Source: Pseudozyma flocculosa PF-1 (taxonomy: Eukaryota > Basidiomycota > Ustilaginomycetes > Ustilaginales > Ustilaginaceae). From it: a stretch of DNA of 64,000 nt. The stretch spans positions 392,308 through 456,307 of the forward strand of contig NW_006920891.1 in NCBI RefSeq assembly GCF_000417875.1. Direction: 5' to 3'. Below the pieces are notes generated by a model. That model worked only from the letters and a program-made list of their open reading frames with translations, did no database searches and was not told the DNA's origin. A program made the translations under genes and the position numbers. Shown here piece after piece: positions 34,573 to 53,330 of this stretch (positions are counted from its first letter, which is position 1; each line of letters starts with the position of its first letter).

Positions 34573-36500
34573 TCAACCAAAGCCCAGCCCCTTACAGATC
34601 TCAAACATGGCACAACAAGCAGGTGGTGGGCAGTGTCCTGCTTCCCATGTCATCAGCTCCACCAAGTTCCTCTTTTTCATCTTGCTGAGCCTCCTCTTGA
34701 TCCCCCCAGCCTCTGTAGCAGCAGCCATCTTGTCAAGGCCCAGTTTGTTGATGCCCTTGTTCCTCATCTTCTTGCTGTAGGTAGCCAGCTCCTCCGCCAT
34801 GCCATCCACCTCGTCCAGTCTTGCCCTCACCCACTCTGGCACATCCTCCTTCTCCAGGAGAGCACCAAGGAAGTGCCACCATCCCCCAGCTGTGCCCTTC
34901 TTGTACCGTAGCAGCAGCAACGACAGCTCCAGGAGCAGCTTGCCATCACTGCATGCCTGTGTGACCGTTGTTGAGTTGCTGACTGTGTGGCCCCGGGGAA
35001 GGAGGAAGAGCCCGACCGCCCTGCTCGTGAAGGTGAGGAAGCCTGTCCTGGTGCAGCCGGCTGGAGGGACTTCCCCATTAGCGATGTCGGTGGTGAGCCA
35101 AAGGCCAGCCTCTGGCTTCTTGATGGCAGCATCCTCGGCAAGGGCATCTGACGGCTTGATGTATAGGCACAGCTGCTTGGCAATGAGGCCTTTGCTCTCC
35201 TTGATGTTGACGGTGAAGGTGATCACCCTCTTTGGGGGGGCTAGCAAGTCAAGGCCAGGTTGCTTGTTGAGGTCCTGGTTCTTGATCTCCCTGTTGATGC
35301 TTGTTTGGAAGGTGTCGACCTCTTGCTGGGTGCAGAAGCCCTCGTGGATGAACAGCGCAAAGAGCAGGCCTCTGTCCAGACTGTGCAGCTGCTCTGGGCT
35401 CCACTGGTACAGCTCCTGAAAGCTTGTCGCCCCCTCCTCAGTGCGGCCAATGAGGAACAGGGAAGGCACTGGGCTGGGGGTGTTGTCGGCGTGATGGGCA
35501 ACAAGGGCTAGCTGCCCGCATGGCCAGTAGAGCACCTTGCCAAGGTTGTGGTGCCTGATGTGGACCACCTCCTCCTTGCCATCATGGCAATAAGGGAGGC
35601 AGATCATCTTCTCATCACCCTCCCTGGTGAAGCCATCCTTCCCATTGAACCAGGTGAGCCATGCCTTCCACGAGGGCAGCTTGTGCCAGACATCAGGGTT
35701 GGCAAGCACTCCATCAACCTTCAAGGTCAAGAGGCTGATGGTGCTGAAGGCTGTCCAGCAGTCCCTCACAGCCTCCTTCCCATGCACCAGCACTGAGCTC
35801 ATGTTTGTGGGCAACTTGTAGCCACCGTCCGTGGGGGGGCTCCTGGCCAGGAACAGGGCCATCAGCACTGAGATGGAGAACTCAGTGCTGATGGCAAGGT
35901 TGGCCAAGGGGTGGTAGAAGGCTGACCCCATAGCCACTGTTGGCACCACAAATAGCATCGCGTCCTTCTTGAAGAGGGCGCAGAACTGCCAGGGCCTGGA
36001 ATCCTCATCCTGGAGAGGCGGGTCCTCATGAAGTCGAAGGCGCCGTCACCTTCCTTGATGACCTGCAAGGCATCCTTGTCGTAGGACCAGGAGAAGCAGG
36101 TCCAAGCTCCAGTGTCAAGAGCTGCGTTGACCAAGTCCAAAGGGAGCGTCAACTCAGCAATGACCACCCTTGTCTTGTGGGTGGTGTTCTCCAGGAGCTT
36201 GAGGAGGTCCTCCTTGATGTCTGCAGAGACAAAGGTCTTGAAGCCACATCTGCTCGTCTGCATGATCTCAGCAGGTGCAAGAACCATGTCATGACACAAC
36301 AGGTGTTGTGGGCTACCACCACTGTTCACACACAGACACAGGATCAAGTCTAGACTGATGTTTCCTTGTGGTTGCAGAACCTCTTGCTGCAGCACTGATG
36401 ATGGCAGGAGCAGGAGCAGGTCCAAAGCCCAGGGTGCATCTCTTCATTCCATTCTCACAGCCCCACCTTGCTTGAGCGACATTTGGCTCATCAGCCTCGA
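34100..36500. mobile_element. Low-GC accessory island, possible mobile-element remnant
   Basis: Between RCC1 and the potassium channel about 2.4 kb differ from everything around: lower GC, many CA/TG dinucleotides, and codons with A or T at third positions. The coding content is one unrecognised protein broken by a frameshift. The only other sequence in the window with this look is 51.5-53.3 kb, which encodes a recombinase-like protein. The right edge carries three 20-bp direct repeats. I see no terminal inverted repeats or reverse transcriptase. The mobile-element label is inference. Confidence 0.4.
34573..36425 (-). pseudogene. Unrecognised protein, reading frame broken near 36040
   Basis: Two overlapping minus-strand frames make up one apparent protein. 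The upstream part (36425 to about 36040) reads through EIMQTSRCGFKTFVSADIKE, LTLPLDLVNAALDTGAWTCF and ends near EGDGAFDF. The downstream part, shifted by one base, continues with HEDPPLQDEDSRPWQFC and runs for 461 further residues from its first ATG at 35958 to the stop at 34573. It is rich in Trp, Leu and His (for example WHKLPSWKAWLTWFNGKDGF and WWHFLGALLEKEDVPEW) with a basic C-terminus (GGIKRRLSKMKKRNLVELMT). No GT-AG intron fits the frame change. I recognise no domain. Codon use is unlike the neighbouring genes. It could be a decayed element-encoded protein, or a live gene with a sequencing indel. Confidence 0.45.
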
Positions 36501-47976: not shown

Positions 47977-49128
47977 TTACTGGCGGGGTCCACGACGGCG
48001 CGGCAGGCGAGGGCCGTGGCTACTCTCCGATGCAGGCGGGTTGCGTCCGGGTGCTGTCAACGTGTCGCTGTCCCAGAACCTCCACGGATCGACGTTGGCA
48101 AGCTCCGCATCATTGAGCGATGGGTAAGCGGCTTTGAGCTGGGCCAGCACGGGAGGCGGGTCGATGACGTACGGCCTCAGATCCAGTTCGAGGAGGTAGG
48201 GGCCGTTGCGGGCGTAATGCTGTGCCTTTGCGACATAGCGCTGATCGATTTCCTGGAGCATGTAGACGTGATCGGCAGGCGTGTCTGGATGGTGCTCCCG
48301 GACGTAGGACACGGTCTCCCCGAACGCTTCGCGGAGCAGCACTCGGCGGGCCTCGAGCTGAGCTCCCAACGTCGTGATACCGCGTTCCAGCTGCTTCAGG
48401 ACCGCCTCGAGGTCGAGGAGACTGGCATCTGTCCAGCCATGAATCCAGCTGCTCAGCCGGTAGTAATTCGCCTGAAGATGATCGTGGGCGGGTTGGGCAT
48501 GTCCGAGCTCGACCATCGCGTCGCGGTGCACGTTGATCTGCGCCTCGATCTCTTCCGCAGTCAGACCCCAGTTGATGAAGCGGTCCTGGGTGCGGATAAG
48601 GTCGTTGCAACGCGAGAGGTGCATCTGCGCGATGCGAGCGTACGTGGCGGGCGGGAAGGGGAAGGGATTCGACTCCGGCTGCTGACCCCACTGGAAGCGT
48701 CGCAGAGCGTCAAAGATGCCATCGGAAGCACGTCTTTCCTTGTCCTCCGGACGATCAAAGGTCGGCTCGTACGTGTACGCCTTCCACTCTGCCAGTTCCG
48801 ACAAGAGTCGCTCGTACCGCTCGGTCTCTAAGATGGCATCTACAGAGAAGGTCGGACCCCTTGGCGCCGTTCCGGTCGCTCCGGCGGCGAAGAGGGTTCT
48901 TTTTGCATCGGCGAAGAAGGTCCTTCGTGCATCGGCGAAGAGGAAGCGGAATGGGCGAGCGGTTCTTGGAGCTCCTCTGATGCAGTGCGTGCGGCGCCCT
49001 CGATCCAGTTGCCGAACTCATCGAAGCCGCGAGCCGCGAGCCGAGGCGTCGAGGCCACCTTGGACGATGGAGAAGAGCAACGACAGTGCCAGCGTGGCGA
49101 GGCTGACGCGGGTCGGACCGACCTTCAT
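47977..49128 (-). CDS. Predicted secreted protein, paralogue of the gene at 50245-51279
   Basis: My model has two exons, 49128-49059 and 48974-47977, total 1068 nt, 355 residues. The N-terminus MKVGPTRVSLATLALSLLFS is a clear signal peptide. The 84-base intron removes an in-frame TGA at 49018-49020; its donor (GTGGCC) is weak. The mature protein is helical and charged, e.g. ETERYERLLSELAEWKAYTY, TYARIAQMHLSRCNDLI and QLEARRVLLREAFGETVSYV. The last two match TYTRLGQKHLARCADIL and NLEARRVILGGLLDASAKRK of the divergent neighbour. I know no family for either. Inside the proposed intron and beyond, another frame reads DEFGNWIEGAARTASEEL, which resembles the neighbour's YGEWGAGAGNAFEHAAGEL, so the true N-terminal region may instead involve frameshifts or a different splice. 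A TATA box lies upstream. Confidence 0.6.
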
Positions 49129-49383
49129 GGAAGTCGCATGGGACGGGACGCCGCGGCTGGACGCCGTGGGTAAGGGTGCTTGTGCTCGGCGGCGGTGGCG
49201 AAGCGTGCGAGAATGGTGGAAGGCACTGAGCAAGACCTCAAAGGTGTGCTCCAGAGCCCCTATAGAGTCGGTGCACGGCAAGATGGAGAATCTGGAGAGC
49301 AGGAGCGGGCTCGATGGATGAATAGGAAGAGGTGTAGCATACGGGAAACGTGTAAGAGCCCTTTTGTGGGCGCCGTCGAGCAT

Positions 49384-49395
49384 GCTTATATACCC
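49384..49395 (-). promoter_or_regulatory. TATA box of the minus-strand secreted paralogue
   Basis: On the minus strand the sequence reads GGGTATATAAGC, about 260 bases upstream of the ATG at 49128. It is a near-consensus TATA element in GC-rich surroundings. Confidence 0.6.
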
Positions 49396-50073
49396 TTCAC
49401 CCACATCCGTCTTCGTCCCCGACGGCCTTGCTCTATGTCTTGCAGCGACGAGAAGGGGAGGCCAGCTCACGGTGGCTCCCTAAGCCTCGCTGGCTACGGC
49501 AGCCTTTCCGAGCGCGATCGCACCCGCCACGACCGGTCGCGCTCGAGATGAAGGCTTCCCACCGCATCGCCGGCGCCGGGGCGAGACGGGTCTCTCCGAC
49601 GGCGCTGCCGTGATTGTTGATTCACGCCGCACGTGTGGGACGCTCCGAGATGATTCGCGTTAAAGTCACCCGGCCTGTCCGTACCGACCATGCATCTACT
49701 TGCTCGCACCTTGATCCGCCCCGGCCGTCTCCACCATATGGATCTGGATCTGAAGCCGGCGGGCGGCGATCGGTCAGCGCATAAGGACGACTCGTTCACC
49801 GAGTTGCTTTGTGCCGCGCCGGCTTCATCAGCCACGCACGAGTCCCTACGCGTTGTCGGCGCGGCGTGAATGTGGGACTTTGCTATCCTCCGAAGTGAGA
49901 ATAAACGGGTCAGGGACAATGCCCAGCATGCAACGCTCCGAAGCTCGGGGCAAACCAGCATGCATGTAGGTGATGTCTTTGTCCTTCTCGTCCGCTCCGA
50001 GATTGCTCCGACGACGCCTAGTCAACGACGTCATGTGCAAACAGCGACGTGAGGCTCGGCCAAGGACGGCGCG

Positions 50074-50085
50074 CACATAAAAGGC
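50074..50085 (+). promoter_or_regulatory. TATA-like box of the plus-strand secreted paralogue
   Basis: CACATAAAAGGC lies about 165 bases upstream of the ATG at 50245, flanked by GC-rich sequence. Confidence 0.5.
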
Positions 50086-50244
50086 GCGCGGTCGAGAGAG
50101 CGTGCATGTACATGTGTAGCCTCCTCCTCTCACCTTTCTCGCCAATTCGTGGCCATCCTACGCCTTGCACGAACCGCTATATCACCACCACCGACGCACC
50201 GAAAGCACCTCGTGAAGCACTGTCCGTCGATCAAGGCCTGCAAG

Positions 50245-51279
50245 ATGAAGCTCTCTTCGATCTGGCCTGCCACGGTCGTCGCCGTCGCCCTAGCCTTCCT
50301 TGGCCCCGGCGGGCTTATCGCCTCAGTCTCCGCTGCCGGCCCATTCCCTTCGTACGGGGAGTGGGGTGCTGGCGCTGGGAACGCTTTCGAACACGCTGCG
50401 GGAGAACTCGCCGACGTCATTGGACAAGGCTCGGCGGGACGCAGCGGCCTGCTGCACGGCGGCCCGTCGTCGTCTTCGACCGCCGAACGGTACAGCCAAG
50501 GCGAGCGCAACGCCTTCGAGAGACTCGAGCGTCCCATCGAAGCTCCGAGGCCCGGCTCTGCCATGACCGTCAAGCTGGTCCTGCACAACAACGCGTACGA
50601 CGAGGCCCAGGCCCGTATCTGGGCGTACAGGCTCTACGACTACGGCCGAGTCGAGTGGCGCGAGGACAGTCAGCTTCTGTCGAGGATGAGGCGGCTACAG
50701 GCCGATGCGGACGACGGCTTCCTATACGGTACCTACACCCGGCTCGGTCAGAAGCATCTGGCTCGGTGCGCCGATATCCTGAACAAGTTCGACGCTCTCG
50801 TCGACGGGGAGATGAGCGCGAGGACGATCAGGATCCTCTCGGCCCGTCTGGACCAGGCCGAAGCGAACCTGGGACACGTCCGATGGGTGCACGCGCAGCT
50901 GACCGACCAGTCCACCAAGCTCAAGAACGACGTCCGCGCTCAGCAAGACCCGCGCGGCCTCGACGCAGCGGCCATCTTTGACGTGGATTCGACGCTCGGC
51001 GACCTGCTGCGCACTGAGACGATCATGTCGACGAACCTCGAGGCCCGCCGTGTCATTCTCGGCGGCCTCTTGGACGCGAGCGCGAAGCGCAAGGCGACCT
51101 ACACGCTCCTCGATGTGCCGCAGCCGAGCATCAGGCTCGCCAAGAAGAAGTTCCGCCTCGCCCCGTCATGGTGGTCGGACGGCAAGCGTGGCCGCGACTT
51201 TGACATGCCCCCTTGGCTCCAGAGCGAGGCGGCCACTTCGCACACGCCCGCCGAGCTCGTCGGTATCGACCCGTGGTGA
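50245..51279 (+). CDS. Predicted secreted protein, paralogue of the gene at 47977-49128
   Basis: Single exon, 344 residues. MKLSSIWPATVVAVALAFLG is a signal peptide; the mature protein probably begins near AAGPFPSYGEWG. A Gly/Ser-rich stretch (GGPSSSSTAERYSQGERNAF) leads to a mostly helical, charged body with ARIWAYRLYDYGRVEWRED, TYTRLGQKHLARCADIL, GEMSARTIRILSARLDQAE, NLEARRVILGGLLDASAKRK and a C-terminus WWSDGKRGRDFDMPPWLQ. Only one cysteine is present in the mature part, so it is not a disulfide-stabilised type. I recognise no domain. The frame is open upstream of 50245 only from a GTG, so the ATG preceding the hydrophobic core is the start. It is head-to-head with a diverged paralogue and directly upstream of a recombinase-bearing island, a setting common for fungal effector families; that role is inference. 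Confidence 0.75.
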   Translation: MKLSSIWPATVVAVALAFLGPGGLIASVSAAGPFPSYGEWGAGAGNAFEHAAGELADVIGQGSAGRSGLLHGGPSSSSTAERYSQGERNAFERLERPIEAPRPGSAMTVKLVLHNNAYDEAQARIWAYRLYDYGRVEWREDSQLLSRMRRLQADADDGFLYGTYTRLGQKHLARCADILNKFDALVDGEMSARTIRILSARLDQAEANLGHVRWVHAQLTDQSTKLKNDVRAQQDPRGLDAAAIFDVDSTLGDLLRTETIMSTNLEARRVILGGLLDASAKRKATYTLLDVPQPSIRLAKKKFRLAPSWWSDGKRGRDFDMPPWLQSEAATSHTPAELVGIDPW

Positions 51280-51674: not shown

Positions 51675-53330
51675 TGTAGCTGCAAGACAATACTGATGAT
51701 GATGATTGCTGCAACAGACTGAGGGTCAGCCTGATTCTCCAGGACATGAGGAGATCCCTCGTCAGCGGAGGGGCTACCGAGGCGATCCTGCAGAGGATGG
51801 CCCTGGTGCAACTGGTATTCGCCACAGGACTGAGGATCGGCTCCCTCTGCAGCACCGATCCCCGTGACGACGAGAGGTTCGGCATGCTCCAGGAGGACGT
51901 GGAGTTCAGGCAGGAGGGTCCTGGCACCTACCTGCTTGTTCTGCATGTGCACCACCTAAAGGGGTTCCAATCAGCAGGAACCAACAGGCAATCCATCCAC
52001 CCAAGGATCCCCCCTCTGTGTCTGCCGACCAATGTTGCCCTGGAGGCCACCCCAACCCTCCTCAACATCCTTGTCCACAGAGGAGCTCTCTTTGAGAAGG
52101 GGAAGCACGGGAGGCAGATCAAATCTGTCCGAGAGCTCCTGGCTTCAAAGGCTGCAGAGTTCAGAGGTGTTGGCAAGGAACCCCACTTTTGCGCCCTGGC
52201 CGAGGATCACCTTGAGATGACAGACAAGTTCCTGTCTGTCAAGGCTGCCTGCTCTGCACTCCTGAGGCATGCTGTCAACATTGGCCTCAAGTTTGGATCG
52301 TTTCATATGATTTGCCACGACTTTGCCACCCAGTTTGCTACGGCATACTCTGCAGAGGTTGCACGCCTGCTGCTCAACCATGAGCAGGCCAAGGACACTC
52401 TGCACAGGAACTACACTGGCGGCATCTTGAACTTCAACACCATTGCGCTTTGGGCGGGCAAGCTGTGTGAGGACAGGGACCAGGAGATCATCAACATTCT
52501 TGCGCGCTTGACCTACTACGAACAGAGGGCAAATGGTCCAGGGGTACAGGCGCTGGCAGAGGAGAGTGCCAGTGGTGTCCCTCCTGTCCAGAGCAAGGGT
52601 CACGTCCACTGCCACAGCAAGAACAGGCCAGCAGAGCAACTTGAGGCAGACTGTGCCAAGGACCAGGCCTACAGACAGCTCAAGGACACATTCGATGACG
52701 CTTCAAAGGAAGTTGAGGTGCGCACAGTCATCAAGGTCTTTGAGAATCACAAGTTCAATCAGCAACATCTCAAGGCCAACAAGGTGTTCAACTCCATGGC
52801 AGAGGGCAAGGCCAAACGTCTTTGTGAGCTGGCTATGTCCAAGCTGGTCTCAGCAAGGACTGCCCTGCAGACATGCAGGCAGCACATCCTCCGCATCTTG
52901 GCAGAGCGGACCAAGCTCTTGTCTCCTGGGAAGCAGGCAAGGAGCAATAGGGACCTCTATCAGTGAACAGGGAGAAGCAGATCATCAACACTGTTGCACA
53001 TTCAATCTTCATCAGCAGATGATGGATGGCCTGATAGTACTGATCTGGAGATCAACAACTTCCTGACAGACACCACCCAGCTTGCAAGGCTCCAGCACAG
53101 CATCAAGGACCACAACAAGGACTGCAACAAGAAGAGTTCCATCCTTCTTGCATGATCCACCAACTTTTGGCAGAAGGAACCGGTTGTTGATTGCAAGGGT
53201 CTGCTTGCTTCTATGCAGGTTGGCAGCCCCTACCAGCTTCAGGTTGATGTCCAGTCATGAAGCAGTCCAGCCTTGAAGCAACAACCTCGACATGCCAGTT
53301 GCGTCCACCCTGTCTCATTGGTGCTCTGGC
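51480..53330. mobile_element. Low-GC island with tyrosine-recombinase-like gene
   Basis: About 1.85 kb of AT-richer, CA/TG-rich sequence starting 200 bases after the secreted paralogue. Its composition matches the 34.1-36.5 kb island. It encodes a recombinase-like protein. I see no terminal repeats, which fits Crypton-like or captain-type tyrosine recombinase elements, but the element limits cannot be set by eye. Confidence 0.45.
51746..52966 (+). CDS. Tyrosine-recombinase-like protein, probably degenerate
   Basis: 406 residues from the first ATG; the frame is open to about 51680 (residues ending NRLRVSLILQD), so the protein is probably truncated at its start or begins in an unseen exon. Features of tyrosine recombinases are visible: LVQLVFATGLRIGSL with Arg30 as the first catalytic Arg, a strand LLVLHVHHLKGFQ, then MICHDFATQFATAYSAEVAR and LLLNHEQAKDTLHRNYTGG with His191, His212 and Tyr223. 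The HxxR position reads HDFA, so the second Arg is missing. The layout is close to the DUF3435 and Crypton-type recombinases of fungi. The C-terminal 150 residues are Lys/Gln-rich and helical. After the stop another frame continues with LEINNFLTDTTQLARLQHS, hinting at a lost C-terminus. Codon use differs from flanking genes. Activity is doubtful. Confidence 0.55.
   Translation: MRRSLVSGGATEAILQRMALVQLVFATGLRIGSLCSTDPRDDERFGMLQEDVEFRQEGPGTYLLVLHVHHLKGFQSAGTNRQSIHPRIPPLCLPTNVALEATPTLLNILVHRGALFEKGKHGRQIKSVRELLASKAAEFRGVGKEPHFCALAEDHLEMTDKFLSVKAACSALLRHAVNIGLKFGSFHMICHDFATQFATAYSAEVARLLLNHEQAKDTLHRNYTGGILNFNTIALWAGKLCEDRDQEIINILARLTYYEQRANGPGVQALAEESASGVPPVQSKGHVHCHSKNRPAEQLEADCAKDQAYRQLKDTFDDASKEVEVRTVIKVFENHKFNQQHLKANKVFNSMAEGKAKRLCELAMSKLVSARTALQTCRQHILRILAERTKLLSPGKQARSNRDLYQ

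What the first reader, a model, noticed from the sequence alone, without database searches (positions are those of the whole stretch)
47977..51279. Head-to-head pair of secreted paralogues of an unrecognised family
Two predicted secreted proteins (about 355 and 344 residues) lie divergently 1.1 kb apart. They share TYxR[LI]xQxHL[AS]RCxD[LI] and LEARRV[IL]L in the same order and have similar lengths, so they are paralogues despite strong divergence. Neither has a domain I know. Such divergent, fast-evolving secreted pairs next to a mobile-element island are typical of plant-pathogen effector clusters. The effector role is inference; the paralogy is read from the sequence.
Basis: partly seen in the sequence, partly recalled or inferred. 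Interest (0 to 1): 0.85.

Follow-up and report, generated by a model that had tools for sequence, protein, structure and literature searches.

The report
Orphan secreted gene pair, one interrupted
Two neighbouring, oppositely facing genes of a smut-like fungus descend from one duplicated gene for a probably secreted, helical protein with no relatives found; one copy looks intact and the other has an interrupted reading frame.

Summary
The paralogy is real: the core of the minus-strand gene (A) matches the plus-strand protein (B) at 25% identity (E 1e-14; 0 of 1000 shuffles), and in this 23.05-Mb genome they significantly match only each other. B (50245-51279) is one clean 344-codon frame with a signal-like start. 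A is not a clean 355-residue gene: its ATG frame stops after 36 codons, and the stretch resembling B's N-terminus lies in another frame. The 355 residues need an 84-nt intron with weak splice sites. A is frame-interrupted or unusually spliced. Neither matches Pfam, NCBIfam or PDB sequences above cut-off, nor, beyond the pair, a 5.8-billion-protein collection that does hold smut proteins. Both model as helical, with low confidence and no significant fold match. Composition and one gene tree suggest a Pseudozyma flocculosa-like fungus, a powdery-mildew antagonist; this is inferred. Best reading: a lineage-specific pair of candidate secreted effectors, B probably functional, A decaying or re-spliced. 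The plant-pathogen role is unsupported.

The parts
50245..51279 (+). Gene B: intact 344-codon ORF; hydrophobic signal-like N-terminus (best 12-residue mean 2.43 at residues 9-20); one cysteine (C175) in the conserved HLARC
   Evidence: found as P0001
49018..49128 (-). Gene A, start piece: ATG and signal-like 36 codons (best 12-residue hydropathy 2.33), ended by TGA 49020-49018
48843..49031 (-). Gene A, middle piece in another frame; resembles B residues 34-97
49025..49043 (.). Short tandem repeat (7-nt unit, 2.7 copies) at the first frame change of gene A
47977..48849 (-). Gene A, core piece: 290 codons plus stop, same frame as the ATG; matches B residues 108-344; one cysteine (core residue 81) in the conserved HLSRC; 34 residues beyond the end of the match
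   Evidence: its 215-aa ORF is P0002
48840..49058 (-). Candidate 219-nt intron that would join start piece and core and leave out the middle piece (310 aa); pyrimidine-rich TAG acceptor, poor donor GTGGCC, no CTRAY motif in its last 45 nt
   Evidence: splice consensus recalled
49129..50244 (.). Shared intergenic region, 1,116 nt, GC 0.61
49362..49377 (-). 16-nt element 249 nt upstream of gene A's ATG, 14 of 16 equal to the one before B, same orientation relative to the gene
   Evidence: statistically weak
50065..50080 (+). 16-nt element 180 nt upstream of gene B's ATG, partner of 49362-49377
   Evidence: statistically weak
51746..52966 (+). Tyrosine-recombinase-like ORF (406 aa), neighbour, not part of the pair
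   Evidence: Pfam Phage_integrase E 0.062, below cut-off; 6 further partial matches in the genome

Best explanation
An ancestral gene for a secreted, helical, single-cysteine protein was duplicated in inverted orientation in this lineage, giving a head-to-head pair that diverged to about 25% identity. B is probably a working member: it is exported through the secretory pathway and acts outside the cell or in a partner organism as a non-enzymatic helical binding or scaffold protein. A no longer has a single reading frame near its N-terminus; it is either decaying or yields a protein without the middle segment by splicing. Shown: paralogy, orientation, B's intact frame, A's frame interruption in this assembly, one conserved cysteine in each. 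Inferred: secretion (hydropathy only), helical fold (low-confidence models), the binding or scaffold role, and the identity of the organism.
For: Paralogy. B is one frame with a signal-like start and no later membrane-like segment (maximum 19-residue mean hydropathy 0.64). A: stop after 36 codons, B-like middle piece in another frame, 290-codon open core (3 of 2000 Markov sequences of its composition were stop-free at that length). No relatives beyond the pair in the 5.8-billion-protein collection, with a GH1 control that recovers smut proteins. No Pfam, NCBIfam or PDB-sequence match above cut-off. Helical models: A core pLDDT 60.4 and pTM 0.61, B pLDDT 44.8 and pTM 0.40.
Against: No expression, secretion or interaction data. 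The relatives search needs shared 5-residue words and scored only 7,993 and 7,994 candidates, so distant homologues could be missed. Only one genome of this lineage could be searched. A's interruption could be an assembly error or be bridged by splicing. The middle-piece homology is strong as a whole but weak in each half. A's core has a third-position GC of 0.745, below the 0.814-0.955 of six native coding stretches, while B's 0.823 lies within it.
Confidence: 0.5

Rival explanations
1. Both genes work: A is spliced (best model: 219-nt intron, 310 aa, without the middle segment), and the two proteins are a co-regulated effector pair comparable to divergently transcribed pairs of other fungi.
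For: 56 single-intron models keep A's core in frame with its ATG, one with a pyrimidine-rich TAG acceptor. 65 two-intron models keep most of the B-like middle piece (40 printed). A 16-nt element lies upstream of both genes in the same relative orientation.
Against: None of the donors in the 56 models follows the usual GTRNGT (consensus recalled), and none of the 56 has a CTRAY motif in the last 45 nt. The promoter element is reached in 12 to 101 of 1000 randomisations at k=16 and in 136 to 666 at k=20. A's B-like middle piece suggests it was once coding.
Confidence: 0.27
2. A's interruption is an error of this assembly or a strain polymorphism, and A is an ordinary intact paralogue in the living organism.
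For: The first frame change falls at a short tandem repeat. The core is open for 290 codons. The protein collection seems to hold another assembly: P0002 lies on a 542,907-base contig, whereas the window's contig has 539,165 bases. P0002's cluster has two member sequences, so A may differ between assemblies.
Against: No reads or second assembly could be inspected. Two frame changes are needed. The member count does not say how the members differ.
Confidence: 0.15
3. Neither is an effector: the pair is a lineage-specific secreted or cell-surface structural protein with a housekeeping role in the fungus.
For: A single cysteine each, unlike small cysteine-rich effectors; no host evidence; third-position GC of B (0.823) is within the range of native genes.
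Against: Restriction to this genome and strong divergence are more usual for interaction proteins (general knowledge); no conserved family match.
Confidence: 0.08

Closest known systems
Lineage-specific candidate secreted effector proteins (CSEPs) of Pseudozyma flocculosa, e.g. Pf2826
   Same: Secreted-looking proteins confined to one fungus of this kind; more than 200 are reported for P. flocculosa (PMC6079639 passages)
   Different: No sequence of any CSEP could be compared here; induction on contact with mildew is unknown for this pair; one of the two is interrupted
Divergently transcribed fungal effector pairs Avr2-SIX5 and SIX8-PSL1 of Fusarium oxysporum (PMC10942635 passages)
   Same: Two secreted proteins encoded head to head. 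SIX8-PSL1 is held by a disulfide between the two proteins, and here each protein has one cysteine at the same conserved place
   Different: The Fusarium partners belong to two structural families, these two are paralogues; no interaction or co-expression data; no fold match
Generic antiparallel helical bundles (spectrin repeats, designed bundles)
   Different: Within the background the tool gives for helical models; no sequence similarity; not evidence of kinship

Membership tests
Lineage-specific candidate secreted effectors (P. flocculosa-type CSEP) | N-terminal signal peptide, no later membrane segment | tested here: inconclusive
   B fits by simple hydropathy, but no trained signal-peptide predictor was available; for A it depends on splicing
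Lineage-specific candidate secreted effectors (P. flocculosa-type CSEP) | No homologue found outside the lineage | tested here: met
   (7,993 and 7,994 candidates scored; word-based limits), no family match; control
Lineage-specific candidate secreted effectors (P. flocculosa-type CSEP) | Expression induced by contact with host or prey | not testable with these tools
   no transcript data held
Lineage-specific candidate secreted effectors (P. flocculosa-type CSEP) | Organism is P. flocculosa | tested here: inconclusive
   window GC about 0.65 against 65.3% reported for A. flocculosa; GH1 closest to Thecaphora frezii, outside the Sporisorium/Ustilago group; T. frezii contigs reported closest to A. 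flocculosa; strain PF-1 reported as sister to other Ustilaginales, but another strain of that name has 57.15% GC and 18.7 Mb. No direct sequence match.
Divergently transcribed cooperating effector pair | Two intact secreted genes head to head | tested here: inconclusive
   orientation met; A is not one open frame as it stands, and splicing is undecided
Divergently transcribed cooperating effector pair | Common promoter or co-regulation | tested here: inconclusive
   shared 16-nt element; 12 to 101 of 1000 randomisations as good at k=16, 136 to 666 at k=20
Divergently transcribed cooperating effector pair | Physical interaction of the two proteins | not testable with these tools
   no complex prediction or assay
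Known helical effector or bundle folds | Significant structural match | tested here: inconclusive

The most novel reading that the evidence does not exclude
The pair is a two-member, lineage-invented family of secreted helical proteins that pair through their single conserved cysteine (HL[AS]RC) and act together on another fungus: a head-to-head cooperating effector pair in fungus-on-fungus antagonism, built from paralogues, with one member remodelled by loss or splicing-out of its N-terminal segment.
Probability: 0.08. Interest if true: 0.7.

Novelty: new member of a known kind. Interest (0 to 1): 0.36.

Why it matters
If B is a contact-induced secreted protein of a mildew antagonist, it adds a helical family with a single cysteine to the effectors thought to work between fungi. 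A's state would show how such pairs arise by inverted duplication and are then lost or re-spliced. If not, it is one more pair of orphan genes; one comparison counted 201 to 1,186 orphan genes per smut genome (PMC5897528 passages).

Tried and rejected
Known families. Pfam gave only HTH_Cmi2_C for B at E 0.13 and EFTUD2 for A's middle piece at E 0.046, both below cut-off. NCBIfam gave only ATP synthase alpha models for B, best E 0.074, far below cut-off. PDB sequence search gave nothing better than E 0.2. All treated as chance. Rfam: 0 matches in the window at gathering scores.

More family members. Further whole-genome matches were L005 (E 0.62, A only) and L014 (E 0.15, B N-terminal part only). 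A profile of the two sequences, run over the window and the loci then in hand, gave L014 at E 0.019 and L005 at 1.9, both below the inclusion line of that small search. Not accepted as relatives.

Fold identification. Foldseek and VIA-align gave only generic helical matches. ClyA-type and spectrin-type chains appear in the lists within the helical background, so no kinship or function is claimed.

Shared promoter. The 16-nt pattern has no other exact match in the genome, two one-mismatch matches, and two for the reversed control; it was built from those two sites, and randomised flanks reach the score fairly often. Kept as weak.

Organism by literature. The P. flocculosa genome paper is not held. 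Searches for a 33-contig smut assembly and for Thecaphora assemblies gave listings with nothing used. The GH1 tree used 12 rows that I chose from the 120 listed.

A slip: the row labelled 'frame1' was the same frame as 'frame2'; the third frame was tested.

Full report
What is there. The window lies in a 23.05-Mb genome of 33 contigs; GC of the window is about 0.65. Left of the pair lie an ORF with isocitrate lyase similarity and other conserved genes (DHX29-like helicase, ion channel, RCC1, ALG6/8); right of it lie a recombinase-like ORF and a GH1 glycosidase. Gene B is a single ORF at 50245-51279, 344 aa, with a hydrophobic start and no later membrane-like segment. Gene A lies on the minus strand from ATG 49128 to the stop ending at 47977.

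Paralogy. A's 290-residue core aligns to B 108-344 at 25% identity, E 1e-14, with 0 of 1000 shuffles as high. In the whole genome, B finds A's region at E 3.3e-9 and A's 215-residue ORF finds B's region at 7e-6; the only other hit at E <= 10, to A alone, has E 0.62. The aligned core conserves TYxRxxQxHLxRCxD, LGH, LEARRVxL and a DPW near the C-terminus. B and A's core each have exactly one cysteine, at the same aligned place, and A's middle piece has none.

State of gene A. The ATG frame stops after 36 codons. The next stretch resembles B 34-97, but in another frame (score 59; 0 of 2000 shuffles and 0 of 2564 control segments as high). The other two frames score 26 and 27, at the shuffle mean. 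Split in halves, the similarity is weak (154 and 19 of 2000 shuffles), so this step is probable, not certain. The core then runs open in the ATG's frame; 3 of 2000 Markov sequences of its composition were stop-free over that length. A short tandem repeat lies at the first frame change. The most intron-like acceptor gives a 219-nt intron and 310 aa, without the B-like middle piece. There are 65 two-intron models that keep most of the middle piece; 40 were printed, with donors away from the recalled consensus. So A is interrupted or unusually spliced; only transcripts can tell. Third-position GC is 0.745 for A's core and 0.823 for B, against 0.814-0.955 for six native coding stretches.

Relatives. 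Against 5.8 billion proteins, B finds only itself, and the two-sequence profile finds only B and A's 215-residue ORF; 7,993 and 7,994 candidates were scored. As a control the window's GH1 protein found 1,273 proteins among 7,992 candidates (120 listed), the best including Thecaphora frezii (73%), Sporisorium reilianum (67%) and Ustilago loliicola (63%). Smut proteins are therefore in the collection, although distant relatives sharing no 5-residue word would be missed. Pfam, NCBIfam and PDB-sequence searches gave nothing above cut-off.

Organism. In a GH1 tree of 12 rows the window groups with T. frezii (support 91/93) and then with an unnamed protein, P0008 (98/96), outside the group of S. reilianum and U. 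loliicola. Passages seen: A. flocculosa GC 65.3% (PMC10849329); T. frezii contigs most similar to A. flocculosa (PMC9933313); strain PF-1 clusters as sister to other Ustilaginales, while another strain labelled A. flocculosa has GC 57.15% and 18.7 Mb (PMC10262431). This suggests a P. flocculosa PF-1-like genome; a size near 23 Mb for PF-1 is recalled, not from a call. It is inference from one gene and composition. For P. flocculosa, passages of PMC6079639 report more than 200 candidate secreted effectors among its unique genes and a group of ten highly expressed on contact with barley powdery mildew; [quoted passage not shown]

Regulation. A 16-nt element, 14 of 16 equal, stands 249 nt before A and 180 nt before B in the same relative orientation. 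The joint pattern has no other exact match in the genome and two one-mismatch ones, with two for the reversed control, but the pattern was built from these sites. Randomised flanks reach the same score in 12, 23, 35 and 101 of 1000 runs at k=16, depending on flank length and offset, and in 136 to 666 at k=20; at k=24 the best match lies elsewhere and is not significant. Weak evidence.

Verdict. The best explanation is a lineage-specific inverted duplication of a secreted helical protein, B likely functional, A interrupted or re-spliced. The comparison with paired fungal effectors (Avr2-SIX5, SIX8-PSL1; PMC10942635 passages) is an analogy; the single aligned cysteine makes a disulfide-linked dimer a testable idea, nothing more. 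No claim is made that these genes are undescribed in print: the searches gave listings in which no title or abstract start described them.

Noticed in passing
window 51746-52966 (+): Tyrosine-recombinase-like ORF (Phage_integrase E 0.062, below cut-off) in a stretch of lower GC (about 0.57), with 6 partial matches elsewhere at 41-64% identity: looks like an old, decayed mobile family.
   Followed up: partly
window 34576-36045 (-): 490-codon open stretch in a region of lower GC, with no Pfam or NCBIfam match and four partial relatives elsewhere in the genome at 26-34%; possibly another mobile-element protein.
   Followed up: partly
window 57162 onward (+): Start of another secreted-looking protein (MQFNIAFVLSALVAVPAALA...) with an apparent intron after about 88 codons; first exon has no Pfam match above cut-off.
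   Followed up: partly
P0002 against contig C23: The protein collection holds the identical 215-aa A ORF on a 542,907-base contig, while the window's contig has 539,165 bases: this suggests a second assembly of the same fungus; the cluster has two member sequences, so A may vary between them.
   Followed up: no
P0005: A GH1 protein filed under Cichorium endivia groups with Sporisorium and Ustilago in the GH1 tree, so it is probably smut contamination of a plant assembly.
   Followed up: no
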